From Candidatus Omnitrophota bacterium (GTDB lineage Bacteria; Omnitrophota; 4484-213), in assembly GCA_021158625.1 (NCBI GenBank), contig JAGGUG010000044.1, positions 1 to 35,361 on the forward strand: 35,361 nucleotides of DNA, read 5' to 3'. This document shows, piece by piece, positions 24,930 to 35,361 of the stretch (its first letter is position 1; each line of letters opens with the position of its first letter). Made by a program: the position numbers and the translations under genes. The notes beneath the pieces were generated by a model that was given only the letters and a program-made list of their open reading frames with translations, was not told the origin of the DNA and searched no databases.

Positions 24930-27157
24930 AAAAGAACAAAATAATATATTTATTCTTTCTCGGTCTACTAATTTCTCTTTTAGGAGATTTAAGGTCAGTC
25001 TACGCGCTGGATGAGCAACCTACTCGCCTCGCTGAGTCGGCGCTTGTCTCGGGGCGCTCGCCTCTCGGCGAAGCCGAGGAAAATCAGGGGAAGCGGGTTA
25101 AACAATCCACAAGCGTAAGTGAGGCAATGGCGCATTACAATTTGGCTAAGAAGTATTTTTTATCCGGAGAGTATACAAAAGCCCGCCAGGAATTTGGCTT
25201 AGCCGCCCAATTAGATCAGAGTAAACGCAAGTCCGTTTATCGCCTTTCCCGGATGTATCTAAAGAAAATTGAGGAATTAGAAAAGAAGAGGAAACAGACA
25301 GAGGCGAGAAAGAGATGGGAAAAGATGAGGGCGGAGAAGTTAAGAAAGCAAGCCGAACTCAAAGCCAGGCGCGAAGCAGAAAGGAAAGCCAGACAGGAAG
25401 CCGCGCAGAGGGCTAAGGAAGCCACACAAAAGAGAAGAGCTGAAGTTAGAGCCAGGAAGGAAGAGCTCAAGAACTACTATACCAAAGGCAAAATCCATTA
25501 TCACAAAGGACAATATCAAGAGGCGATTGAGGAATTTAAGAAAGTTTTAAGTTTAGACCCAGAACATAAGGCAGGGAGATATATTGAGCTTTCCTTGAAG
25601 GCGATTGAAAAAAGAAAGCAGAGAAAACTTTTAGCTCAGAAGAAGGCAGAGCAACAAGCCAAGAGACAAGAGGAAGTGAGACCTCCCTCTCAAGAGCGGG
25701 AGGTTAAACCGGGCGAGAAAGAAAGTCTGAAGGAAGAAATAGAGCGACTTAAGCGTCAGATTGAAGAAGAAAATACTCGACTTAGGCTCGAGATAGAGAA
25801 ATTGAGAGAATCCCAGGAAAAGGCAAAGGAAAGGGAGTTGAGGCCAAAGGTTGAGGGGATGTTAGCGAAAAAGGAGGCCTTGGCTCTGGAAGAAGCAAAA
25901 TTAAAGGCATTCGTTGCGGGTCTTCAGAAGCTTGAAGCCAGACAGAGGAGACTTAAGCGGGAGGCCGAAGTTAGGATGAGTTTTAACAAAAAGGAGAGAC
26001 TCAAAGCAAGGGAAAGAAGAATAAGAGAAGAAGAGGCTAAGCTTAAGCTCAAACTCAAGGAAGAAAAGAACGCTCTCAGAGCCCGGCTTGAAGATGAATC
26101 AAAAAGAAAATTGAACTCTCTCCTTGAGGAAAAAGAAATTTTTTTCATTAATCAACTTGAAGAATACAAGCGAATACTCCAGGAGAAAGAAATTCCCTCT
26201 GTGGTTCAATTAAAAGAGAAAAAAAAGAAGATTTGTGCCCAATTGGCAAGTCTCCAGGAAGAGAAAAAGAGGCTTGAAGAGCTAAAACGCTCAAGGGCTG
26301 AACTAAGGAAAAAATTAGAAAGGAAATTCCAGCGACAGATTAAAGAGAAACTCACTCCCGGGCCCTCACTTCGGGTTGAAGTTAAAGAGGAGGATGAAGA
26401 ACTCAAAGCCAATTTGACAGCTGTTAATGAGAAGATAAAAAGGGTAGAGAAGATAAAGAAAGAGATAGAAGAGGAGTTACTGAATGAGGAGAAGAAACAG
26501 CAGAAGCAGAAGGAAAAGGCTCTGAAGGAAGAGAAAGCGCGAATTAAGCGAGAGTTTGAAAGGCAAAAGACTCGATTGGCTCTTGAGTTCCAAAAGGAGT
26601 TAAAGGCAAATTTTCAGACCCGGCTTAAGGCTCTGGAAGCAGACCGTAGGACCAAAATTGAGTCAATCTTAAAAGAGGAAGAAAAAAAAGAGAAGTTGGC
26701 TTCTGAATCAGAAAAGAAGTTACTTCAGGCGATTCTCAGAAAGTTAGGAGAGGTTAAACAACAAAGAGTTCAGGCCCAGGATAGACTTAAGGTCATTGAA
26801 ACTCTACGAAGAGAGCTTGAGGCACAGAGGAAAGCCGAACTCAAAGCCAGGCGCGAAGCAGAAAGGAAAGCCAGACAGGAAGCCGCGCAGAGGGCTAAGG
26901 AAGTAGAAGCCCCACCCATAGAACCCCCGGCCGGGGAATACTTAATAAGCGAGGGCGATACATTAGAGATCTTTGTTTACCTTCCTGACCTTCCAGAAGA
27001 AGTCAGCGTCAACTTGGATGGCGAGATTTCCTATCCTCTAATTGGCACGCTCCAGGCGAAAGGAAAAACCATAGACCAATTAAAGGAAGAAATCAGTGAG
27101 AGATTATCTCAATTTATAAATAATCCCTATGTCTCATTAACGATAAAAGGAAAATAG
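24926..27157 (+). CDS. Exported coiled-coil/TPR protein with polysaccharide-export (Wza-like) domain
   Basis: 743 residues. A signal peptide (KIIYLFFLGLLISLLG ... VYA) is followed by TPR-like repeats at about 68-115 (AMAHYNLAKKYFLSGEYTKA) and 184-220 (YYTKGKIHYHKGQYQEAIEE). Next come some 400 residues of highly charged Lys/Glu/Arg coiled coil and a C-terminal Poly_export fold (about 665-743: EYLISEGDTLEIFVYLPDLP, VNLDGEISYPLIG, INNPYVSLTI). The domain mix suggests a periplasm-spanning protein tied to an outer-membrane export or pilus machine; its exact role is unknown. A 72-base sequence is present twice, 1482 bases apart and in frame, encoding ELKARREAERKARQEAAQ both times. Some residues near the N-terminus (RLAESALVSGRSPLGEAEE) come from a tcgcctc-type palindrome. 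Confidence 0.8.
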   Translation: MKKNKIIYLFFLGLLISLLGDLRSVYALDEQPTRLAESALVSGRSPLGEAEENQGKRVKQSTSVSEAMAHYNLAKKYFLSGEYTKARQEFGLAAQLDQSKRKSVYRLSRMYLKKIEELEKKRKQTEARKRWEKMRAEKLRKQAELKARREAERKARQEAAQRAKEATQKRRAEVRARKEELKNYYTKGKIHYHKGQYQEAIEEFKKVLSLDPEHKAGRYIELSLKAIEKRKQRKLLAQKKAEQQAKRQEEVRPPSQEREVKPGEKESLKEEIERLKRQIEEENTRLRLEIEKLRESQEKAKERELRPKVEGMLAKKEALALEEAKLKAFVAGLQKLEARQRRLKREAEVRMSFNKKERLKARERRIREEEAKLKLKLKEEKNALRARLEDESKRKLNSLLEEKEIFFINQLEEYKRILQEKEIPSVVQLKEKKKKICAQLASLQEEKKRLEELKRSRAELRKKLERKFQRQIKEKLTPGPSLRVEVKEEDEELKANLTAVNEKIKRVEKIKKEIEEELLNEEKKQQKQKEKALKEEKARIKREFERQKTRLALEFQKELKANFQTRLKALEADRRTKIESILKEEEKKEKLASESEKKLLQAILRKLGEVKQQRVQAQDRLKVIETLRRELEAQRKAELKARREAERKARQEAAQRAKEVEAPPIEPPAGEYLISEGDTLEIFVYLPDLPEEVSVNLDGEISYPLIGTLQAKGKTIDQLKEEISERLSQFINNPYVSLTIKGK
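25350..25421 (+). repeat. 72-bp direct repeat, copy 1
   Basis: Identical at every base to 26832-26903, within the same gene and in the same frame. It codes for coiled-coil sequence. Confidence 0.9.
26832..26903 (+). repeat. 72-bp direct repeat, copy 2
   Basis: Second identical copy. It ends shortly before the C-terminal Poly_export domain. Confidence 0.9.
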
Positions 27158-27214
27158 CGTTATAGCGTAATAAAGTTATAGATTTCAACTCAATAACCCA
27201 ATAACAAAGAAAGA

Positions 27215-27273
27215 CCCTTATTTACCCTTATATTCCCTTATTCACCCTTATTTAGCCTTATTAAAATAAGGGG
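27215..27273. repeat. CCCTTAT array 1 (before the GspF gene)
   Basis: Five CCTTAT units at about 10-base spacing end in ccttattaaaataaggggag, flanked on both sides by caataaccc-type units. It shares its end (aaggggagacaataa) with array 3. Confidence 0.8.
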
Positions 27274-27303
27274 AGACAATAACCCAATAACACAATAACG
27301 AGT

Positions 27304-28521
27304 ATGCCTACTTTCACTTACAAAGCCCGAGATAGCTTTGGTGAACTTATCAGTGGGGCTATAGAAGGTGACAATAAGAAAGCCGTAGCCAAGAGCCTTA
27401 ACAGATTGGGTTATAGTGTTATCCAGATAAGCTTGCAAAAATCACTCCAACCAATCCTCACAGATTTTATCAAGGGTTTTCGTCCCATAAGTAAACAAGA
27501 AATAACCGTCTTTACCAGACAATTGGCTACCCTTAGTCGTTCGGGGATGGCTATATCCCCGGCTCTTTCCATAGCGTGTGAGCAGACCACCAATCCTAAA
27601 TTTCGCCTTATCTTAGGGGATGTGGTTAATCATGTCCAGGGGGGTATGAGCCTCTCAGAAGCCCTCTCAAAATATCCTGAGGTTTTCTCGGATCTGTTTG
27701 TAAATATGGTCAAAGTGGGGGAGACAGGTGGGATTTTAGATAAGGTCCTGGATAGACTGGTTACCTTAAGCACTCAGGAACTCGAAAGGAACACGCGCAT
27801 AAGATCAGCATTAATCTATCCTATAGTTCTGGTAGCTGTTGCCTTCTTGGTAGTAAATTTTCTTCTAATAGGAGTTCTTCCGAAGTTTGTTGCTGTATTT
27901 AGGGCATCTCAGGCGAGATTACCGCTGCCCACCCAGCTTATTCTGAGTTTTAGTTGGATTTTGAGGCATCTGTGGTTACCTCTATTGATTGGTGTGGGGT
28001 GCCTCGCAGTTTGGTTTAAGAGGTACATAAAACAACCTGCAGGAAGATACAGGTTTGATTCGAAGGTTTTAAAACTACCCCTGTTTGGTAAACTTTATAC
28101 TAAAATAATGATATCCCGTTTTACAGGTGTCCTCTCAGCGCTCATCGCCTCAGGAGTTCCCCTGCTTCAAGCCCTGGGCGTTGTGGAGAAGACCATTACC
28201 AATATGGTCATCCGCCGCATAGTTCAGAATATACGCACCTCCATCACTGAAGGACAATCTCTGGCCGGAGCATTTAAGACCAGTGGTTTCTTCCCGCCTA
28301 TGGTTGTCCAGATGATATCGGTAGGAGAAAAGACGGGCAAGCTCGATGAAATGCTTCGGGATATTTCTTCTTTTTATGACCCGGAGATAGAATACACGAT
28401 TAGAAATCTAACTACCCTCTTAGAACCATTTATGTTGTTAGCAATGGGGGCTATGGTTGCCTTCATCGCTTTGTCGGTGTTATTACCGATATTCAACTTG
28501 ATTAAAGTGTTCCGGGGATGA
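27304..28521 (+). CDS. GspF/PilC inner-membrane platform protein
   Basis: Polytopic platform that links the assembly ATPase with pilin assembly. The N-terminal cytoplasmic MPTFTYKARDSFGELISGAI is the usual start of this family. Two T2SF domains (about residues 65-190 and 268-395) each show the FTRQLATLSRSGM- or FTGVLSALIASGVPLL-type motif and GE(T/K)(T/G)G turns (VGETGGILDKVL and VGEKTGKLDEML). Three hydrophobic segments (about 168-190, 215-235 and 375-398) are visible. 405 residues is standard. The matching ATPase is not in the window. The start lies between repeat units, without a clear ribosome site. Confidence 0.93.
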   Translation: MPTFTYKARDSFGELISGAIEGDNKKAVAKSLNRLGYSVIQISLQKSLQPILTDFIKGFRPISKQEITVFTRQLATLSRSGMAISPALSIACEQTTNPKFRLILGDVVNHVQGGMSLSEALSKYPEVFSDLFVNMVKVGETGGILDKVLDRLVTLSTQELERNTRIRSALIYPIVLVAVAFLVVNFLLIGVLPKFVAVFRASQARLPLPTQLILSFSWILRHLWLPLLIGVGCLAVWFKRYIKQPAGRYRFDSKVLKLPLFGKLYTKIMISRFTGVLSALIASGVPLLQALGVVEKTITNMVIRRIVQNIRTSITEGQSLAGAFKTSGFFPPMVVQMISVGEKTGKLDEMLRDISSFYDPEIEYTIRNLTTLLEPFMLLAMGAMVAFIALSVLLPIFNLIKVFRG

Positions 28522-28525
28522 GTAT

Positions 28526-28805
28526 AACCCTTATTTTCCGGGGATGAGTATGACCCCTATTTACCCTTATAGTCCCTTATTCTTTATTGAGGAAAACCCT
28601 TATTTAATAGAAGTCCCTTATTAAGAGAAAACCCTTATTTACCCTTATTTAATAAGAATCCCTTATTAAGAGAAAACCCTTATTTACCCTTATAGTCCCT
28701 TATTGAGGGAAGACCCTTATTTACCCTTATTTAATAGAAGTCCCTTAATTCGTCCTTATTGAAAATGAAAGAAAGACTTTATTCGCCCTTATTCACCCTT
28801 ACGCC
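28526..28805. repeat. CCCTTAT array 2 (before the GspG-like gene)
   Basis: About 16 CCCTTA units. Spacing alternates between 10 bases (cccttattta) and 17 or 18 bases (cccttattaagagaaaa, cccttatttaatagaagt). It ends in the 88-bp cassette shared with array 4. Nothing else is in this 287-base gap. Confidence 0.9.
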
Positions 28806-28821
28806 ACTATGAACGCAATAA
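28734..28821 (+). repeat. 88-bp cassette with start codon, copy 1
   Basis: Identical to 29888-29975. It includes the ATG and first codons (MNAI) of the downstream pilin gene. Confidence 0.9.
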
Positions 28822-29264
28822 TGAAGAAAGGTTTTACTTTACTCGAGCTTCTAATCGTAATAAGTATAATCGCTATCCTCGCAGCTACGATGATTCCCAA
28901 CTTTATCGGCTTCGATGCAGAAGCAAAACTTGCTGCTACTCAAAGCAACCTTAATACCCTCCGCACTCGCATTGTTCTCTTTAGAACTAAAGAGGGACAT
29001 TATCCCGAAACTCTGGAAGAACTATTAGAGACCACCTATAGCGATATGGGAATAGAACGGCCATATCTGGATAGTATACCTGTGGAGTTCATCTCTTCAA
29101 AGCAGGGAAATGCTGATGTTGAGAACCAGACTTCCGAGGACCCCCTACCCGGAGACGGCGGCTGGGTCTATTTTGTAGACAAAGCAAAAGTAGTTATAGA
29201 CTGGGATATGCCCCTCGATTCAAAATGGGGAAAGTACGAGGGGGAGGTGCCATCGGAATGGTAG
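28809..29264 (+). CDS. GspG-like major pseudopilin
   Basis: Prepilin leader MNAIMKKG is followed by FTLLELLIVISIIAILAATM, the type IV pilin N-terminal helix with Glu5 after the cleavage site. The body has TQSNLNTLRTRIVLFRTKEG and a C-terminal region (GGWVYFVDKAKVVID) like GspG and other short pseudopilins. 151 residues. The first codons lie in a repeated cassette, and a second ATG at 28821 (MKKG) would also give a usable leader. Export is through the inner membrane after prepilin peptidase cleavage; the peptidase gene is not in view. Confidence 0.88.
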   Translation: MNAIMKKGFTLLELLIVISIIAILAATMIPNFIGFDAEAKLAATQSNLNTLRTRIVLFRTKEGHYPETLEELLETTYSDMGIERPYLDSIPVEFISSKQGNADVENQTSEDPLPGDGGWVYFVDKAKVVIDWDMPLDSKWGKYEGEVPSEW

Positions 29265-29286
29265 TTCGTTATTGTTATAAACGAAG

Positions 29287-29345
29287 AACCCTTATTTACC
29301 CTTATTTTCCCTTATCTTCCCTTATTAAAACTAAGGGGAGACAAT
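29287..29345. repeat. CCCTTAT array 3
   Basis: Four units at 10-base spacing (cccttattta, cccttatttt, cccttatctt, cccttattaa) ending aaggggagacaataa like array 1. Confidence 0.85.
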
Positions 29346-29355
29346 AAATGACGCA

Positions 29356-29712
29356 ATGAACACAATAACAAACAAGGGGGTTGTGCTGTTAAGCGTTGTA
29401 ATTATTCTGCTGACCATAACCTTAATCGGTGGAAGCCTTGCCGCCTTTTTATCATCGGTTAATATCTCAACGTGCAATATAGCCGACCAAACAAAGGCGC
29501 TATACCTGGCTGAAGCAGGCATTGCTCATGCGATTCATAATCTCCGCACCGAGGCAGGAGAGGGTGGCATCCTGGATAAGACGATTGGACCCATTACTCT
29601 TGGAGAAGGAACCTATCAGGTTTCAGTGGATTTTGCCCAATCGCTGATAACCTCAACCGGGGAGGTGCGCGGAACAAGGCGAACACTCCAGTTTCAGTAT
29701 AAACCCCTATAG
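29356..29712 (+). CDS. PilX/GspK-like minor pilin
   Basis: 118 residues starting MNTITNKG, then VVLLSVVIILLTITLIGGSL, a pilin-type helix. The glutamate at +5 is missing, as in GspK and PilX-type tip proteins. ADQTKALYLAEAGIAHAIHN is the characteristic PilX segment after the membrane helix. The short body ends with beta-strand-like sequence. The start codons come from a caataac-type repeat (gaacacaataacaaacaa). It is shorter than typical GspK and lacks its large globular domain. Confidence 0.75.
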   Translation: MNTITNKGVVLLSVVIILLTITLIGGSLAAFLSSVNISTCNIADQTKALYLAEAGIAHAIHNLRTEAGEGGILDKTIGPITLGEGTYQVSVDFAQSLITSTGEVRGTRRTLQFQYKPL

Positions 29713-29739
29713 CGTTATAGGGTATAGTGTTATAGACGA

Positions 29740-29956
29740 AGACCTTTATTTTCCCTTATTTACCCTTATTTAATAGAAGTCCCTTATTAAGAGAAAACCC
29801 TTATTTAATAAGAATCCCTTATTGAGGAAAACCCTTATTTACCCTTATAGTCCCTTATTGAGGAAAACCCTTATTTACCCTTATTTGATAGAAGTCCCTT
29901 AATTCGTCCTTATTGAAAATGAAAGAAAGACTTTATTCGCCCTTATTCACCCTTAC
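29740..29956. repeat. CCCTTAT array 4 (before the GspI-like gene)
   Basis: About 12 units. Its order and sequence are very similar to array 2, with cccttattgaggaaaa and cccttatttaatagaagt units, and it ends in the same 88-bp cassette. Confidence 0.9.
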
Positions 29957-29975
29957 GCCACTATGAACGCAATAA
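29888..29975 (+). repeat. 88-bp cassette with start codon, copy 2
   Basis: Identical to 28734-28821, 1154 bases apart. It provides the ATG and MNAI codons of the next pilin gene. Confidence 0.9.
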
Positions 29976-30379
29976 CAAATAAAGGTTTTACCTACATCGA
30001 GCTTCTAATAACCCTGGTGATAATGGCGGTTTTGTTTGTCCCGATGATGCAAGTATTTTCCCATTTCCTCCATTCCACCGTGGTATCCCAGGATTTCATA
30101 ACCGCAACAAATTTAGCCAGATGGGAGATGGAGCGGGTCAAAAATCTGAATATGACCAAAGCCCAACTTAGAGAAGCGGGCGATAGCATATATCCGTCGG
30201 GTGAACCGCTTGAGATGAATAATGCAAAGTGGCGGATAAGCAGAAAGGTATTCAAAGAGACTGATCCTCTGGAGGTTCGTGTTTCTGTCTTCCATGACGG
30301 TGAACCCGACAGGCCCCTCGTGACCCTGGTGACGCTAATTGAGGATACGATTTGGGAGGAAATTCGCCCATTGGAATAA
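29963..30379 (+). CDS. GspI/PilV-like minor pseudopilin
   Basis: 138 residues. Leader MNAITNKG, then FTYIELLITLVIMAVLFVPM with Glu5. ITATNLARWEMERVKNLNMT is the helix that follows in GspI and PilV proteins, which act in the pseudopilus tip. The C-terminal half has RISRKVFKETDPLEVRVSVF, consistent with a small beta-sheet domain. It overlaps nothing real; the track's ORF starting at 30352 is an out-of-frame extension of the next gene. Confidence 0.82.
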   Translation: MNAITNKGFTYIELLITLVIMAVLFVPMMQVFSHFLHSTVVSQDFITATNLARWEMERVKNLNMTKAQLREAGDSIYPSGEPLEMNNAKWRISRKVFKETDPLEVRVSVFHDGEPDRPLVTLVTLIEDTIWEEIRPLE

Positions 30380-30383
30380 AGAT

Positions 30384-30518
30384 GTTCCCTTATTCACCCT
30401 TATCAAGGAAGATCCTTATTTTCCCTTATCAAGGAAACTCCCTTATCAAAGGAAGTCCCTTATCAAAGGAAGCCCCTTATTTTCCCTTATCAAGGGACCC
30501 TTATTCACCCTTATCAAA
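30384..30518. repeat. CCCTTAT array 5 (before the GspJ-like gene)
   Basis: Units of 10 bases (cccttattca, cccttatttt) and 17 bases (cccttatcaaaggaagt). The 17-base unit is a mini-palindrome, CCTT-atca-AAGG. No stop codons occur in one frame that joins the next gene, which misleads ORF callers into a longer protein. Confidence 0.9.
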
Positions 30519-30562
30519 CCAAGAGGCAGAAATGGTCTATCAACCCAAAGACCCCTTAGGTT
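30496..30562 (+). repeat. 67-bp leader cassette, copy 1
   Basis: Identical to 32020-32086. It contains the end of the array, a gcagaa-ATG start and codons for MVYQPKDPLG. A shorter copy lies at about 32798-32853. Confidence 0.9.
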
Positions 30563-31746
30563 TTACCCTAATTGAGCTACTGATTGCTATCGCCATATCG
30601 GTAGTAATTAGCGCGGCGATATACTTCAGTCTGAGTAGTGCCCTGGAGAGCTGGGGATATTCCCGGGACCATCTTGCTCTTCAGAAGGTTATTTCAGAGG
30701 TTATGGACGAAGTTGCGGACGGGACCTTCAGAGCATATGGACTAAAAGACAGTTTAGAAATACTATCAGCGAGCGGGACAAAGATAGAGTTTGTCCCCCC
30801 CTGGACCGACGATACCCATATGTTTATCTCTGGTGACCTAATTTATACCTTGAACCGTCGACCCAAGCCCGGGTCGGCAGTGCCAGTTGGAGAGGTTAAA
30901 TTCCCCGGCTCAGATGAGTATCGAACCATACCCGTAACTCTTGTTGAAACAGAATTTATAAAAGAACCTCAGGTTAAGATTGGCTTGGTGCCGCCTGAAG
31001 GGAGCCAACTTCGCTTTACCTACCATCCTGACCCCAAAACAAACCCCGATACAATAAAGACTATCTGGTGGGACCCGGAGGAGCAACAACTCTATTCAGA
31101 GGATATAGATGGGATAGAGAATATCTCTAGGAACCCTCTTGGAGTAAAGCTCACCGATTTTCGCCTGCGATACTACGATAACGCAAATAACCCGGTAGGC
31201 GACCAGGGCGGGCTCGACCAGAATACTCTGCTGACGGTCACCGGAATCGAGGTATGGATGAAGGCTGAACTTGGCCAATATTCACAAGAATTAGTGAGTT
31301 TCGTAAACCTGCGCAATTCACCAATGCGTAAAGGTTTCCTGACTTTAAGAGAAGGCACTAAATTTCCCATTCCTGACAGCCACAACATCCACACCCTTTT
31401 ATTGACCAACTTTTCGGGTGTAGGGAATCTGGACGAACTTCAGCTTGAAGCCACTCCATCCACAGGAAAGAGCTGGGGGGTAACTATAAAGTTTTCAAAA
31501 ACGGGTTCAGCTAAAGCCATAATAGAGACTCTTATTATAGAATATCCACCTGGCCATTCCATCTATACTGAACACCCTCGCTCAAGCGTTGAGCTGGGAT
31601 TGGATCTGCTTACCCTGGGTGCCAATGGCCTCTATGACTACGATGACGACCCGGACATCGAGGACTTTGTCCTGCTGAAGGATGAGGTGGTATTAGAGGT
31701 GAAGAGGATGGATATCGAAGGTGCCGGGCTTTTCGTTAGACCATGA
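30532..31746 (+). CDS. GspJ/PilW-like minor pseudopilin
   Basis: I choose the ATG at 30532, giving the prepilin leader MVYQPKDPLG and then FTLIELLIAIAISVVISAAI with Glu5. The track's start at 30352 would translate the repeat array and bury the leader. The result is 404 residues. The N-terminal part resembles GspJ/PilW (LSSALESWGYSRDHLALQKV). The large remainder holds beta-rich segments (GVKLTDFRLRYYDNANNPVG) and an acidic end (YDYDDDPDIEDFV). It is longer than usual GspJ (about 200), so the C-terminal half may be a lineage-specific domain. The leader cassette is repeated elsewhere. Confidence 0.83.
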   Translation: MVYQPKDPLGFTLIELLIAIAISVVISAAIYFSLSSALESWGYSRDHLALQKVISEVMDEVADGTFRAYGLKDSLEILSASGTKIEFVPPWTDDTHMFISGDLIYTLNRRPKPGSAVPVGEVKFPGSDEYRTIPVTLVETEFIKEPQVKIGLVPPEGSQLRFTYHPDPKTNPDTIKTIWWDPEEQQLYSEDIDGIENISRNPLGVKLTDFRLRYYDNANNPVGDQGGLDQNTLLTVTGIEVWMKAELGQYSQELVSFVNLRNSPMRKGFLTLREGTKFPIPDSHNIHTLLLTNFSGVGNLDELQLEATPSTGKSWGVTIKFSKTGSAKAIIETLIIEYPPGHSIYTEHPRSSVELGLDLLTLGANGLYDYDDDPDIEDFVLLKDEVVLEVKRMDIEGAGLFVRP

Positions 31747-31748
31747 AA

Positions 31749-32041
31749 AGACCCTTATTGAAGGAAGACCCTTATCAAAGGAAGTCTCTTATCAAGGGAA
31801 GCCCCTTATTTCCCCTTATCTCCCTTATTCACCCTTATCAAGGAAACTCCCTTATCAAGGGAAGACCCTTATCAAGGAAAAACCCTTATCTTCCCTTATT
31901 TTCCCTTATTCACCCTTATCCAAGAAAGTCCCTTATCAAAGGAAGACCCTTATCTTCCCTTATTTTCCCTTATCAAGAGACCCTTATCAAAGGAGGACCC
32001 TTATTTTCCCTTATCAAGAGACCCTTATTCACCCTTATCAA
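31749..32041. repeat. CCCTTAT array 6 (before the four-helix-bundle gene)
   Basis: The largest array, 22 units. Spacings run 17, 17, 17, 10, 9, 10, 17, 17, 17, 10, 10, 10, 17, 17, 10, 10, 14, 17, 10, 14, 10. The 17-base units (cccttatcaagggaaga) contain CCCTT-atc-AAGGG mini-hairpins. The ORFs at 31721 and 31743 are translations of this array and are not genes. Confidence 0.92.
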
Positions 32042-32086
32042 ACCAAGAGGCAGAAATGGTCTATCAACCCAAAGACCCCTTAGGTT
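32020..32086 (+). repeat. 67-bp leader cassette, copy 2
   Basis: Exact copy of 30496-30562. Here it gives a non-pilin gene the start codon and leader MVYQPKDPLG. Confidence 0.9.
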
Positions 32087-32610
32087 ATAAGAAGCTCCTG
32101 ACCTGGAAACAGGCCGGCGAGATTTATCACAAGACAAAAGATTTTACCAAGAAATACCTCAATAGAACAACAGATAGAAGATTAATTGCTCATATGGATG
32201 ATTCCGCCCGGTCAGTTCAACGTAATATAGAAGAGGGTTATAAAAGGGCAACGACAAAGGAGTATGTTGAATTTCTTGGTTTCTCCCGCGCCTCTTTGGA
32301 AGAATTGAAGGGGGATGTTGAGGAGTTGAAAAGGGAATGGAAAGAAGGGGTAAGATGGGTCGATAAAGGGAAAATAGAGGAGTTGTTGGACCTTATTTAT
32401 GGCGAAGATTGTATGATGGGCAGGCAGATTGCATCTCTGGAGAGGAAGATGGTAGAGGAGAAGACTCTGCCGCAGAAAGAGATGATAATGAGAAGTTGGA
32501 AATTGGATAAATTGAGAGAGAAAAAGTTCTGGAGGTCTATTAAAGATAAATTTGGGCTTGAGAAGGATGAAAAAGGGAGGATAAGAAAGAATGATGATGA
32601 GAAAGAATAA
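32056..32610 (+). CDS. Four-helix-bundle protein (S23/23S rRNA IVP family)
   Basis: 184 residues. After the leader MVYQPKDPLG, the sequence YKKLLTWKQAGEIYHKTKDF and ARSVQRNIEEGYKRATTKEY, then LGFSRASLEELKGDVEELKR, is the S23 ribosomal-type four-helix-bundle family. These proteins are found within 23S rRNA intervening sequences and also free in many genomes; their function is not known. The C-terminal 70 residues are charged and not part of the family core. The first ten codons come from the cassette used by the GspJ-like gene, so its native N-terminus seems to have been replaced. No rRNA gene is nearby. Confidence 0.82.
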   Translation: MVYQPKDPLGYKKLLTWKQAGEIYHKTKDFTKKYLNRTTDRRLIAHMDDSARSVQRNIEEGYKRATTKEYVEFLGFSRASLEELKGDVEELKREWKEGVRWVDKGKIEELLDLIYGEDCMMGRQIASLERKMVEEKTLPQKEMIMRSWKLDKLREKKFWRSIKDKFGLEKDEKGRIRKNDDEKE

Positions 32611-32618
32611 GGAACAGA

Positions 32619-32819
32619 TTTCCCCTTATTTACCCTTATTAAGGAAACTCCCTTATCAAAGGAAGTCTCTTATCAAGGGAAGACCCTTATCAAGGAAAAA
32701 ACCCTTATCTTCCCTTATTTTCCCTTATTCACCCTTATCAAAGGAAGTCCCTTATCAAGGGAAGCCCCTTATTTTCCCTTATCTTCCCTTATCAAGAGAC
32801 CCTTATTCACCCTTATCAA
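32619..32819. repeat. CCCTTAT array 7
   Basis: About 14 units with the same 10- and 17-base rhythm as array 6, and many identical units. It leads into a partial copy of the MVYQPK cassette. Confidence 0.9.
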
Positions 32820-32833
32820 ACCAAGAGGCAGAA

Positions 32834-33343
32834 ATGGTCTATCAACCCAAAAACGCAATAACTCCCGCCTGCCGGACGGGCAGGCAAAAACGCAATAACC
32901 CAATAACAAATAAGTGGCTATCAGTATTATTATTAGTGGTCTTCAGTGTCCTTTTCGCTACGGTTGCCTGTGCTGACGAAAAGGTATGGAGTGCTGGCGG
33001 AGATGAAACGACCTGGAGCGACGACGACAACTGGTTTCCGGCCGTTGAACCCAACAGTGAAGACGATGTCACCATAGATATGGAGGATGCCTCTGTTACT
33101 TGCACCGAGACCTTTAAAGCAAAGTCTATCGTTGTGGGTGGCAGAACGAGTTCGACCCTTACCAGCAACAACTTTGTCTACGGAACAGTAACGCCCGATT
33201 CGGCATCTGATGTGGCATTAGACAATAAAAAGGGCGGCACGATTATCCTGAAGGGTGCTGGAACGCTCACCCTGGGAGGTCAATATAGGAGTTCAGAAGA
33301 ATCTCTCATCTCCGAGCCGAGCTTTATGTTCTGGGTAAAGTAG
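32834..33343 (+). CDS. Exported protein, probably truncated
   Basis: 169 residues from the ATG at 32834; the track's longer ORF reads through the array. The start MVYQPK again comes from the cassette. Then a gcctgcc-ggac-gggcaggc palindrome and caataac repeats encode an odd stretch up to residue 27, followed by a signal peptide (WLSVLLLVVFSVLFATVACA). The mature part begins DEKVWSAGGDETTWSDDDNW and runs into beta-strand repeats, the style of large extracellular beta-helix or adhesin proteins. The stop codon falls at the left edge of an inverted repeat that carries the next gene, so it may be cut short by that insertion. The signal peptide could in reality start nearer 32912. Confidence 0.6.
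   Translation: MVYQPKNAITPACRTGRQKRNNPITNKWLSVLLLVVFSVLFATVACADEKVWSAGGDETTWSDDDNWFPAVEPNSEDDVTIDMEDASVTCTETFKAKSIVVGGRTSSTLTSNNFVYGTVTPDSASDVALDNKKGGTIILKGAGTLTLGGQYRSSEESLISEPSFMFWVK
32861..32886. repeat. GCCTGCC-GGAC-GGGCAGGC palindrome
   Basis: Perfect short palindrome inserted between two aaaacgcaataac units. The flanking direct repeat could be the duplicated insertion site. Confidence 0.65.
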
Positions 33344-33386
33344 AAGCGGATCTCCGCGGATAGCGACGCAGAAAGACGCGGATAGA
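33342..33386. repeat. Left inverted repeat of the GxxExxY cassette
   Basis: Agaagcggatctccgcggat and gacgcggata; its complement recurs on the far side of the gene at about 33775-33819. Confidence 0.65.
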
Positions 33387-33389
33387 ATA

Positions 33390-33797
33390 ATGGGAAAGTT
33401 ACTATATGAAAAGGAGTCGTACGAGATACGCGGCGCGTGTTTTGCAGTTTGGAAAGAATTCGGCAGTGCTTTTAAAGAGACAGTAATTGAAAAAGCCTTG
33501 GCAAAAGAGTTTAAGGAGAGAGGATTGTCTATAGATCGCCAGAAACGGATAGATATATTCTATAGGGATGAAAAAGTGGGCGTTTATATTCCAGATTTTG
33601 TAATAGATAATAAAATTATTATAGAGATTAAGGTTAAACCTGTATTGATTCAAGAAGACAGGCGACAGTTTTGGCATTACCTTAAAGGTTCTCATTATCG
33701 TCTTGGGTTTTTGGTCAATTTCGGTACGAAGAAACTTGAGATTGTTAGGAGGGTATATGATTCTGCGCGCACAAGATATCAGCGTATATCCGCGTAG
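33390..33797 (+). CDS. GxxExxY-type protein
   Basis: 135 residues. LLYEKESYEIRGACFAVWKE and the following GSAFKETVIEKALAKEFKER match the GxxExxY family (Pfam name), with some changes at the naming motif. VYIPDFVIDNKIIIEIKVK has the D...ExK spacing of PD-(D/E)XK nucleases, so a nuclease role is possible but untested. It lies between inverted repeats (agaagcggat ... atctgcttct) and has different codon use from its neighbours, suggesting a mobile cassette. The C-terminal ARTRYQRISA is coded by the right inverted repeat. Confidence 0.8.
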   Translation: MGKLLYEKESYEIRGACFAVWKEFGSAFKETVIEKALAKEFKERGLSIDRQKRIDIFYRDEKVGVYIPDFVIDNKIIIEIKVKPVLIQEDRRQFWHYLKGSHYRLGFLVNFGTKKLEIVRRVYDSARTRYQRISA

Positions 33798-33819
33798 ATA
33801 TCCGCGTCTATCTGCTTCT
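33775..33819. repeat. Right inverted repeat of the GxxExxY cassette
   Basis: Tatccgcgtagatatccgcg and ctatctgcttct complement the left repeat. It overlaps the end of the GxxExxY gene. Confidence 0.65.
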
Positions 33820-33848
33820 AAATAACCCAATAACAGGAGGTAAAAGCG

Positions 33849-35361
33849 ATGAAAAAGAAAATTTGGATGTTGGTGTTAATAGCAATGGTCATCTTACTTG
33901 GCGTCCACTATCTTTACGCCGGCCAGCTCCTCTTTGACGGTGTTCCCGTGGACATCACCACGACCGACAATGAGGACCTGGTCATTGTCCCCGGCAGTGG
34001 TGGTAATACTCAAATAGGCGATGCCACCGGCGCAAATACCCACGCCACCTCAAACGACGATTTGCATGTGACAGGCGTTTTAGAAACCGACGGTGTCCTT
34101 TATTCTGACTCAGGCATAATTTCAGGTTCCACCATCCGCTCGGACACCGACTCAACAGATTCGCTCGGTTCAAGCTCAACTGCCTGGTTGAACCTCTATG
34201 TAGATTCAGTCAAGACTGTATCCGGCACGAACCTTATTCTTCTCCCAACCTCGGCATATACCATAATCGGCGATGCTGGCTCAGCAGGCCATGTCTCAGC
34301 CAACGACGACCTCTTTGTATCAGGCGCTTTGGAGGTTGACGGCACAATCTACGCAGACGGCGCGATTACCGCTGGGTCAAATATCATTTCCGATACCGAC
34401 TCAACCGACTCGCTCGGTTCCTCTAATATCGCCTGGTTGTACCTCTATGTAGATACTATCTCCACAACATCAGGGACAGACCTTTCGTTATCTCCAGCAT
34501 CAGGAAGCGGCGTGGATGGCTCGGTAACCCGTTCTGCCGCAACAGGTAACGAAATTGCCTACGACCTCGCCGCCACTGTAGAGAAAGCCTCGGGAGACTT
34601 TACCGGCCTCAGACTCAATGTCACAGATACCGCCTCACCCGGGCTGCTTAAACTGCAAGACCTGCAAGTCGGGGGGACTTCCATATTGCAGGTTTATGAA
34701 GACACAAACTCTGCCAACTATGGCCGTCTATCAGTCGGCTCTGCCCCCTGGGATGGCGAAGCATCAGGACACTTTGTTGGCTCCTCAGACGGCACCCAGA
34801 TTGCCGTAAATGCACCGGATACCTTTACCGGAAATCTTATTGACTTACAAGTCGCCGGTGTTTCCAAATACAAAGTTAGTTATGAGGGTATAGTTACCCA
34901 GGTTGGCTCCCAGACCGTTACTGGAAATATCGTTCCCTCGGCAGATTCAGAGTATAACCTCGGCTCAACCTCGGCTGCCTGGTTGAATCTTTATGCCGAC
35001 AATATCAAGACAGTGAGCGGCACGAACCTTATTCTTCTCCCAACCTCGGCATATACCATAATCGGCGATGCCGGCTCAGCAGGCCATGTCTCAGCCAACG
35101 ACGACCTCTTTGTCTCCGGAGCCGCAGAAGTCGACGGCACCCTCTACGCCGATGGCGGAATAACCGCCACCACTGTAAATGCCACCACCTTTGATACCAA
35201 TGTTGCTGCTGCCGGCCTCACTCTCTCCGGGACGACCCTTGCTGCTGACGGCACCGATACCGACATCAACATCGCGATTACCCCCCAGGGCGCAGGCGAG
35301 GTGGATATCAGCAAGGTCGATATCGATGGCGGGACTATTGACGCGACAACCATCGGGGCGA
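33849..35361 (+). CDS. Large repetitive exported protein, 3' end outside window
   Basis: Not in the ORF track because it has no stop before the window edge. An excellent ribosome site (caggaggtaa) precedes the ATG. A signal peptide, MKKKIWMLVLIAMVILLGVH..YA, is followed by at least 480 residues rich in Ser, Thr, Asp and Gly. Repeated blocks include SDTDSTDSLGSS..AWLNLYVD and LILLPTSAYTIIGDAGSAG, then HVSANDDLFVSGA and EVDGT.YADG. The pattern resembles phage tail-fibre-like and surface beta-repeat proteins of uncultured bacteria, often ending in an endosialidase chaperone domain (not visible here). The gene is clearly richer in C than its neighbours. It could be cargo or an adhesin linked to the secretion system; this is inference. 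Confidence 0.8.
   Translation, partial: MKKKIWMLVLIAMVILLGVHYLYAGQLLFDGVPVDITTTDNEDLVIVPGSGGNTQIGDATGANTHATSNDDLHVTGVLETDGVLYSDSGIISGSTIRSDTDSTDSLGSSSTAWLNLYVDSVKTVSGTNLILLPTSAYTIIGDAGSAGHVSANDDLFVSGALEVDGTIYADGAITAGSNIISDTDSTDSLGSSNIAWLYLYVDTISTTSGTDLSLSPASGSGVDGSVTRSAATGNEIAYDLAATVEKASGDFTGLRLNVTDTASPGLLKLQDLQVGGTSILQVYEDTNSANYGRLSVGSAPWDGEASGHFVGSSDGTQIAVNAPDTFTGNLIDLQVAGVSKYKVSYEGIVTQVGSQTVTGNIVPSADSEYNLGSTSAAWLNLYADNIKTVSGTNLILLPTSAYTIIGDAGSAGHVSANDDLFVSGAAEVDGTLYADGGITATTVNATTFDTNVAAAGLTLSGTTLAADGTDTDINIAITPQGAGEVDISKVDIDGGTIDATTIGA
34223..34318 (+). repeat. 96-bp intragenic repeat, copy 1
   Basis: Matches 35018-35113 with a single difference (gctggc / gccggc) at an offset of 795 bases, a multiple of three. 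Part of the surface-protein repeat. Confidence 0.85.
35018..35113 (+). repeat. 96-bp intragenic repeat, copy 2
   Basis: Second copy in the same reading frame; see the copy at 34223. Confidence 0.85.

What the first reader, a model, noticed from the sequence alone, without database searches (positions are those of the whole stretch)
30496..32853. A repeat cassette delivers start codon and prepilin leader to unrelated genes
Sixty-seven identical bases (30496-30562 and 32020-32086) end an array and encode MVYQPKDPLG. In the first gene this is a proper prepilin leader, with Gly before FTLIELL. In the second it is joined to a four-helix-bundle protein that is not a pilin, and a shorter copy (MVYQPK) begins a third, exported protein. 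The cassette seems to move or be copied together with array, translation start and leader peptide, giving new genes a ready-made 5' end. The pilin gene is the likely source.
Basis: partly seen in the sequence, partly recalled or inferred. Interest (0 to 1): 0.72.

Follow-up and report, generated by a model that had tools for sequence, protein, structure and literature searches.

The report
Borrowed gene starts via repeat arrays
In an uncultured Omnitrophota bacterium, repeat arrays fill the gaps between pilus genes, and two genes there have swapped their own beginning (ribosome site, start codon, first 6-10 codons) for that of a neighbouring four-helix-bundle gene, so the small gene is the donor rather than the pilin.

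Summary
The 67-nt identical repeat is exact. A 68-nt run links the four-helix gene to the third gene, and MVYQPK starts exactly these three genes and no others in the genome.

The direction of transfer is reversed. MVYQPKDPLG belongs to the four-helix-bundle (4HB, PF05635) gene. A 64%-identical homologue in another Omnitrophota family starts MIYKPKNPVGYK, and GYKKL is a motif shared by other 4HBs. That homologue is itself flanked by CCCTTAT arrays. Pilin homologues in four syntenic operons have unrelated leaders. The third gene's own start is still visible downstream (NPITNKWL; relatives start MNTITNKWL or MKAITNKWL).

So pilin and exported-protein genes are recipients.

Best mechanism, inferred: same-strand arrays in seven consecutive intergenic gaps give homology upstream. 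Copying runs past the array into the donor's 5' end and rejoins at microhomology. In-frame products survive because they bring their own start.

In passing: about half of 85 other Omnitrophota 4HB genes sit between inverted heptamer arrays. The window's 4HB does not; its arrays are direct.

The parts
27215..27251 (+). CCCTTAT array, gap export protein/PilC (4 units)
28528..28792 (+). CCCTTAT array, gap PilC/GspG-like (14 units)
28734..28821 (+). Second array+start repeat, copy A: array end, ATGAACGCAATAA; sits directly before an apparent older start ATGAAGAAAGG (MKKGFTLLELL)
   Evidence: 88 nt identical to 29888-29975; alignment
28809..29264 (+). GspG-like prepilin, MNAI + MKKGFTLLELL
29289..29325 (+). 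CCCTTAT array (4 units)
29356..29712 (+). Small pilus-operon protein, MNTITNKGVV start; homologue at the same place in syntenic operons L191 and L193
29753..29946 (+). CCCTTAT array (11 units)
29888..29975 (+). Second array+start repeat, copy B
29963..30379 (+). GspI-like prepilin, MNAITNKGFTYIELL
30387..30514 (+). CCCTTAT array upstream of pilin (9 units)
30496..30562 (+). 4HB-derived 5' end (array end, AGAGGC, ATG, 10 codons) fused to the pilin at GGT-T
   Evidence: identical to 32020-32086; junction shares AGGTT with sister pilins
30532..31746 (+). GspJ/PulJ-like prepilin, MVYQPKDPLG + FTLIELL; recipient
31752..32038 (+). CCCTTAT array upstream of 4HB, most units (21)
32020..32086 (+). Native 5' end of the 4HB gene: the donor
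   Evidence: homologue L033 starts MIYKPKNPVGYK
32056..32610 (+). Four-helix-bundle protein (PF05635/TIGR02436), 184 aa
32623..32816 (+). CCCTTAT array downstream of 4HB (14 units)
32784..32851 (+). 4HB-derived 5' end (array end, SD, ATG, 6 codons) fused to the exported-protein gene
   Evidence: 68 nt identical to 32006-32073
32834..33343 (+). Exported protein; MVYQPK + NAITPACRTGRQKRN + old leader NPITNKWLSVLLL; recipient
   Evidence: paralogue on C69 MKAITNKWLLMFIF and congener G001 MNTITNKWLLVFLF
32867..32885 (+). Palindrome-like insertion GCCTGCCGGACGGGCAGGC between two AACGCAATAAC copies in the third gene's leader (coordinates approximate to a few bases)
   Evidence: direct reading

Best explanation
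Gene 5'-end capture driven by repeat arrays, with the four-helix-bundle gene as donor. A 4HB gene that travels with CCCTTAT arrays came to lie in a tightly packed type IV pilus / type II secretion pseudopilin operon. Arrays of the same orientation now occupy seven consecutive intergenic gaps. Because the array lies directly before each start codon, recombination or template switching that begins in array homology can run on into the donor's ribosome-binding site, ATG and first codons. It then rejoins the recipient gene at a few bases of microhomology (AGGTT at the pilin, giving the prepilin Gly(-1)). In-frame products survive because they supply their own start. This happened at least twice with the 4HB start (pilin, exported protein) and once with a second start (ATGAACGCAATAA on the GspG- or GspI-like pilin). 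Shown: the sequence identities, the nativeness of the leader to the 4HB, other leaders or starts in relatives of both recipients, the array distribution, and an array-free syntenic operon. Inferred: the recombination route, the order of events and the use of the starts in the cell.
For: Exact repeats. Unique in the genome. 4HB leader native: L033 (GTDB genome G377, another family) aligns from residue 1, 64% identity, first 11 codons with 3 synonymous and 4 mostly conservative changes and none at second codon positions; GYKKL in L094, L112, L117, L122, L128. Array travels with this 4HB: in 10.1 kb of L033 all five sense CCCTTAT lie within 75 nt of the 4HB ORF (0.4 expected over the locus), and three of four antisense copies lie in or beside an 11-codon in-frame insertion inside it. 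In the window all 52 array-triplet matches of the genome fall in 27215-32816, + strand, none inside ORFs, with the highest counts beside the 4HB. Syntenic operon in G006: PilC, GspG, small protein, GspI, PulJ, exported protein with junctions from overlap to about 35 nt, and PulJ starting MKSSGSRGFTLVELL. The third gene's old start is preserved in a paralogue and a congener. Second repeat of the kind: 88 nt at GspG/GspI, placed directly before an ATGAAGAAAGG start.
Against: Only one genome carries the fusions; congeners G001 and G002 show no match to this operon's PulJ, so no unfused close sister was seen. Only two members of this 4HB subfamily are known. Microhomology is clear only at the pilin junction. 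The leader MVYQPKDPLG has no net positive side-chain charge and two prolines, unusual for a prepilin leader, so pilin function is not assured. The contig comes from a draft genome in 128 contigs; misjoining at repeats is unlikely (three in-frame junctions, distinct arrays) but not excluded.
Confidence: 0.72

Rival explanations
1. One reading: the pilin gene is the source, and array+start+leader was copied from it onto a 4HB gene and a third gene.
For: In the pilin the leader ends in Gly directly before FTLIELL, as a prepilin leader should.
Against: The 4HB homologue L033 has the same leader with no pilin gene recognised in its 10-kb locus; GYKKL is a 4HB motif; pilin homologues start MKSSGSRG and the like.
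Confidence: 0.05
2. Whole-element duplication then deletion: array+4HB was tandemly duplicated into three copies, and two lost their bodies by deletions that fused the remaining 4HB start to the next gene.
For: Three copies share array, leader and orientation over up to 240 nt.
Against: No trace of 4HB coding sequence beyond codon 10 at the two recipients; needs two large in-frame deletions. Same donor and recipients, so it differs only in route.
Confidence: 0.25
3. A dedicated mobile element made of array+4HB inserts at gene junctions and carries an outward start as part of its design, like a transposon with an outward-reading translation start.
For: 4HB genes of this Pfam family are flanked by inverted heptamer arrays in many genomes, several of them inside operons; the family is known from 23S rRNA intervening sequences suspected to be mobile (PMC4990558).
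Against: No terminal inverted repeat pair bounds the unit here, no target-site duplication was identified, arrays are direct, and the second repeat (MNAI) carries no 4HB sequence.
Confidence: 0.15
4. The leader is not translated in pilin and exported protein; the repeat is only a 5' untranslated region.
For: No proteomics available to exclude it.
Against: No other start lies between the array and the mature pilin or the signal peptide core; a prepilin must start just before its Gly-Phe site.
Confidence: 0.05

Closest known systems
Terminal reassortment of type III effectors (Stavrinides, Ma and Guttman 2006, doi 10.1371/journal.ppat.0020104; seen here only as a reference in PMC3136466, its content from own knowledge)
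   Same: A 5' end with its translation and targeting signal is joined to unrelated gene bodies.
   Different: There the donor is itself an effector with a selected secretion signal; here the donor start comes from a small four-helix-bundle gene with no export signal and the junctions are anchored in repeat arrays.
23S rRNA intervening sequences with S23p ORF (Coxiella IVS, PMC4990558)
   Same: Same protein family (PF05635); repeats directly upstream of the ORF. In Coxiella GACAGAT heptamers lie between a potential SD and the ATG, with terminal inverted repeats.
   Different: Here the gene lies in a pilus operon, the arrays are direct with 10/17-nt spacing, and no inverted ends are found.
Rickettsia palindromic elements and other MITEs that make in-frame fusions (reviewed in PMC10969869)
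   Same: Repeats add codons to unrelated genes in frame.
   Different: Those insert elements within ORFs; here a gene start with array is added at the 5' end and the unit is not palindromic.
Short tandemly repeated repetitive (STRR) heptanucleotides of cyanobacteria (own knowledge; name found in PMC4748335 and others)
   Same: Degenerate short-unit arrays between genes; heptamer arrays are found here also flanking cyanobacterial 4HB genes.
   Different: No gene-start transfer is known to me for them.

Membership tests
PF05635 / TIGR02436 four-helix-bundle (23S rRNA IVP) protein | Profile score above curated cut-off | tested here: met
   47.7 vs 33.8 bits and 42.4 vs 24 bits
23S rRNA intervening sequence element | Located in a 23S rRNA gene | tested here: not met
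   No Rfam match in 26500-35361; lies in a pilus operon
23S rRNA intervening sequence element | Terminal inverted repeats forming a stem around the ORF | tested here: not met
   Flank comparison inverted 0, direct 595; only short array-internal inverted pairs
MITE / transposon | Terminal inverted repeats bounding the unit | tested here: not met
   No inverted pair bounding the unit
MITE / transposon | Target-site duplication | tested here: inconclusive
   Unit ends lie within repeat arrays, so a short duplication cannot be recognised
Terminal reassortment (5'-end exchange) | Same 5' end on genes with unrelated bodies, with donor and recipients told apart by relatives | tested here: met
Type IV / type II prepilin | Gly(-1), Phe(+1), Glu(+5), hydrophobic segment | tested here: met
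   N_methyl PF07963 26.9 bits vs 21.2
Type IV / type II prepilin | Short basic leader cleaved by prepilin peptidase | tested here: inconclusive
   Leader MVYQPKDPLG has one Lys and one Asp; cleavage not testable here

The most novel reading that the evidence does not exclude
Small four-helix-bundle genes and their short-unit arrays form a widespread kind of mobile or spreading element (inverted heptamer arrays in most, direct arrays in this subfamily) that enters operons at gene junctions and hands its own translation start to neighbouring genes, making it a recurrent source of new protein N-termini.
Probability: 0.3. Interest if true: 0.78.

Novelty: new variant of a known kind. Interest (0 to 1): 0.58.

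Why it matters
It shows, with donor and recipients identified, how non-coding repeat arrays can hand a ready-made ribosome site, start codon and first codons to other genes in one step. It also points to an overlooked link between PF05635 genes and heptamer arrays: 45 of 85 Omnitrophota loci have inverted arrays against about 4% expected, and the same is seen on cyanobacterial plasmids. That link may bear on what these proteins do, which is unknown.

Tried and rejected
Pilin as source: rejected by L033 and the syntenic operons. More members of the 184-aa 4HB subfamily: none in viral contigs, plasmids or 384 phylum genomes beyond G377. TIGR04258 suffix-domain idea: no match, and its controls were silent too, so nothing follows from it. 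CCCTTAT arrays in other Omnitrophota: four genomes of 193 with one to four matches; no 4HB homologue beside those. Similar start-capture beside 85 other 4HB genes: none comparable within about 1 kb (best 24/30, in a heptamer-array locus, against 30/30 in the window). Known RNA family in the arrays: none. Literature on 4HB genes with heptamer arrays: none found apart from the Coxiella IVS note; subscription journals are mostly not covered by that library.

Full report
Observation. The stated repeat is exact: 30496-30562 equals 32020-32086 over 67 nt. The 4HB and third-gene copies share 68 nt, pilin and third gene 54 nt. All end a CCCTTAT array and contain AAGAGGCAGAA-ATGGTCTATCAACCCAAA. In the 1.18-Mb genome the 18-nt start occurs three times, only here, even with three mismatches allowed.

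Source of the leader. A scan of one genome for each of 84,980 species found one close homologue of the 4HB protein, in an Omnitrophota MAG of another family (L033 = G377). It aligns from residue 1: MIYKPKNPVGYKTLLTWKQAGEIY against MVYQPKDPLGYKKLLTWKQAGEIY. In the first eleven codons the differences are three synonymous and four amino-acid changes (V/I, Q/K, D/N, L/V), with none at second codon positions, as expected of translated sequence. GYKKL(I/L)xW is also found in shorter PF05635 proteins of other Omnitrophota. The leader therefore belongs to the 4HB gene.

Recipients. Homologues of the pilin in four syntenic operons carry other leaders (MKSSGSRGFTLVELL in G006). In G006 the operon PilC, GspG, small protein, GspI, PulJ, exported protein has junctions from overlapping to about 35 nt. 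In the window the same order holds, but seven consecutive gaps of 91-309 nt contain 77 CCCTTAT, all on the + strand and none within genes. The third gene retains its old signal peptide start as NPITNKWLSVLLL. A paralogue on contig C69 starts MKAITNKWLLMFIF and a congener's homologue starts MNTITNKWLLVFLF. The similarity of these relatives to the third gene is mainly in the signal peptide. The ancestral ATG is gone in the window gene and the cassette ATG is the only plausible start.

A second case. GspG- and GspI-like pilin genes share 88 identical nt (28734-28821, 29888-29975) that again run from the array through ATGAACGCAATAA. In GspG this lies directly before ATGAAGAAAGG, which by itself would encode an ordinary prepilin start, MKKGFTLLELL. 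So the phenomenon is not tied to the 4HB start.

Array and 4HB. All 52 array triplets of the genome lie in this stretch, with the highest counts on the two sides of the 4HB gene (21 and 14 units, the latter equalled by the PilC/GspG gap). In L033 all five sense CCCTTAT of the 10-kb locus lie beside the 4HB ORF, with 10-12-nt spacing on both sides once one-base variants are counted. An in-frame 11-codon insertion within that ORF is an inverted array piece. So array and this 4HB subfamily appear to travel together, though only two members are known.

Mechanism. Inferred: homology on the left (array), loss of homology in the donor gene, rejoining at microhomology. At the pilin the shared bases are AGGTT (4HB CTTAGGTTATAAG; sister pilins AAAGGTTTTAC), which places the 4HB Gly10 at the prepilin -1 position. 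Selection keeps in-frame products because they bring SD and ATG, which would also explain why a packed operon tolerates the arrays. Duplication of the whole element with later deletion is the nearest rival and gives the same donor and recipients.

Wider pattern. For 85 PF05635 loci from Omnitrophota, the two 250-nt flanks share inverted 8-mers (score 5 or more) in 45 loci against 3.8% of mispaired flanks; direct sharing occurs in 10 loci against 3.1%. The dominant period is 7. Several cyanobacterial plasmid 4HB genes show the same. Coxiella's IVS has heptamers upstream of the S23p ORF (PMC4990558). The window's 4HB and L033 differ: direct arrays, mainly 10- and 17-nt spacing in the window, no inverted flanks. 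I therefore do not file the window element as an IVS element.

Limits. One genome, a draft contig, two subfamily members, no expression data. Whether the pilin with leader MVYQPKDPLG is processed is open.

Noticed in passing
L081, L083, L086, L087, L093, L100, L078, L082 (other Omnitrophota); L170, L178 and others (cyanobacterial plasmids): PF05635 four-helix-bundle genes sit between inverted heptamer arrays whose unit differs from locus to locus (45 of 85 loci vs 3.8% of mispaired flanks). No published description found apart from heptamers in the Coxiella IVS.
   Followed up: partly
window 33331-33389 and 33776-33850: A GxxExxY / PDDEXK_3 gene (33390-33797) is also wrapped in inverted CGCGGATA-type repeats, so a second small gene family may share this habit.
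   Followed up: partly
L086, L083: 4HB genes with inverted arrays appear to lie inside pilus operons in other genomes too (between PilN- and PilO-like genes; beside a PilC-like gene), judged by reading the neighbouring ORFs only.
   Followed up: no
L173, L177 (Pseudanabaena and Anabaena plasmids): A four-helix-bundle gene lies between cas6 and cas4 in two cyanobacterial plasmids.
   Followed up: no
L033 6294-6336: Array sequence in reverse orientation is inserted in frame within the coding region of the 4HB homologue.
   Followed up: partly
window 28809, 29356, 29963, 32889-32913; G000 contig C69 4299-4319; G001 contig C108: MN(A/T)ITNK-type starts recur on pilins and exported proteins with unrelated mature parts in this genus, a possible second shared leader.
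   Followed up: partly
G000:C105:4711-5010 (L103): A second, decayed PF05635 gene (two stop codons) with short heptamer-period repeats exists in the same genome.
   Followed up: no
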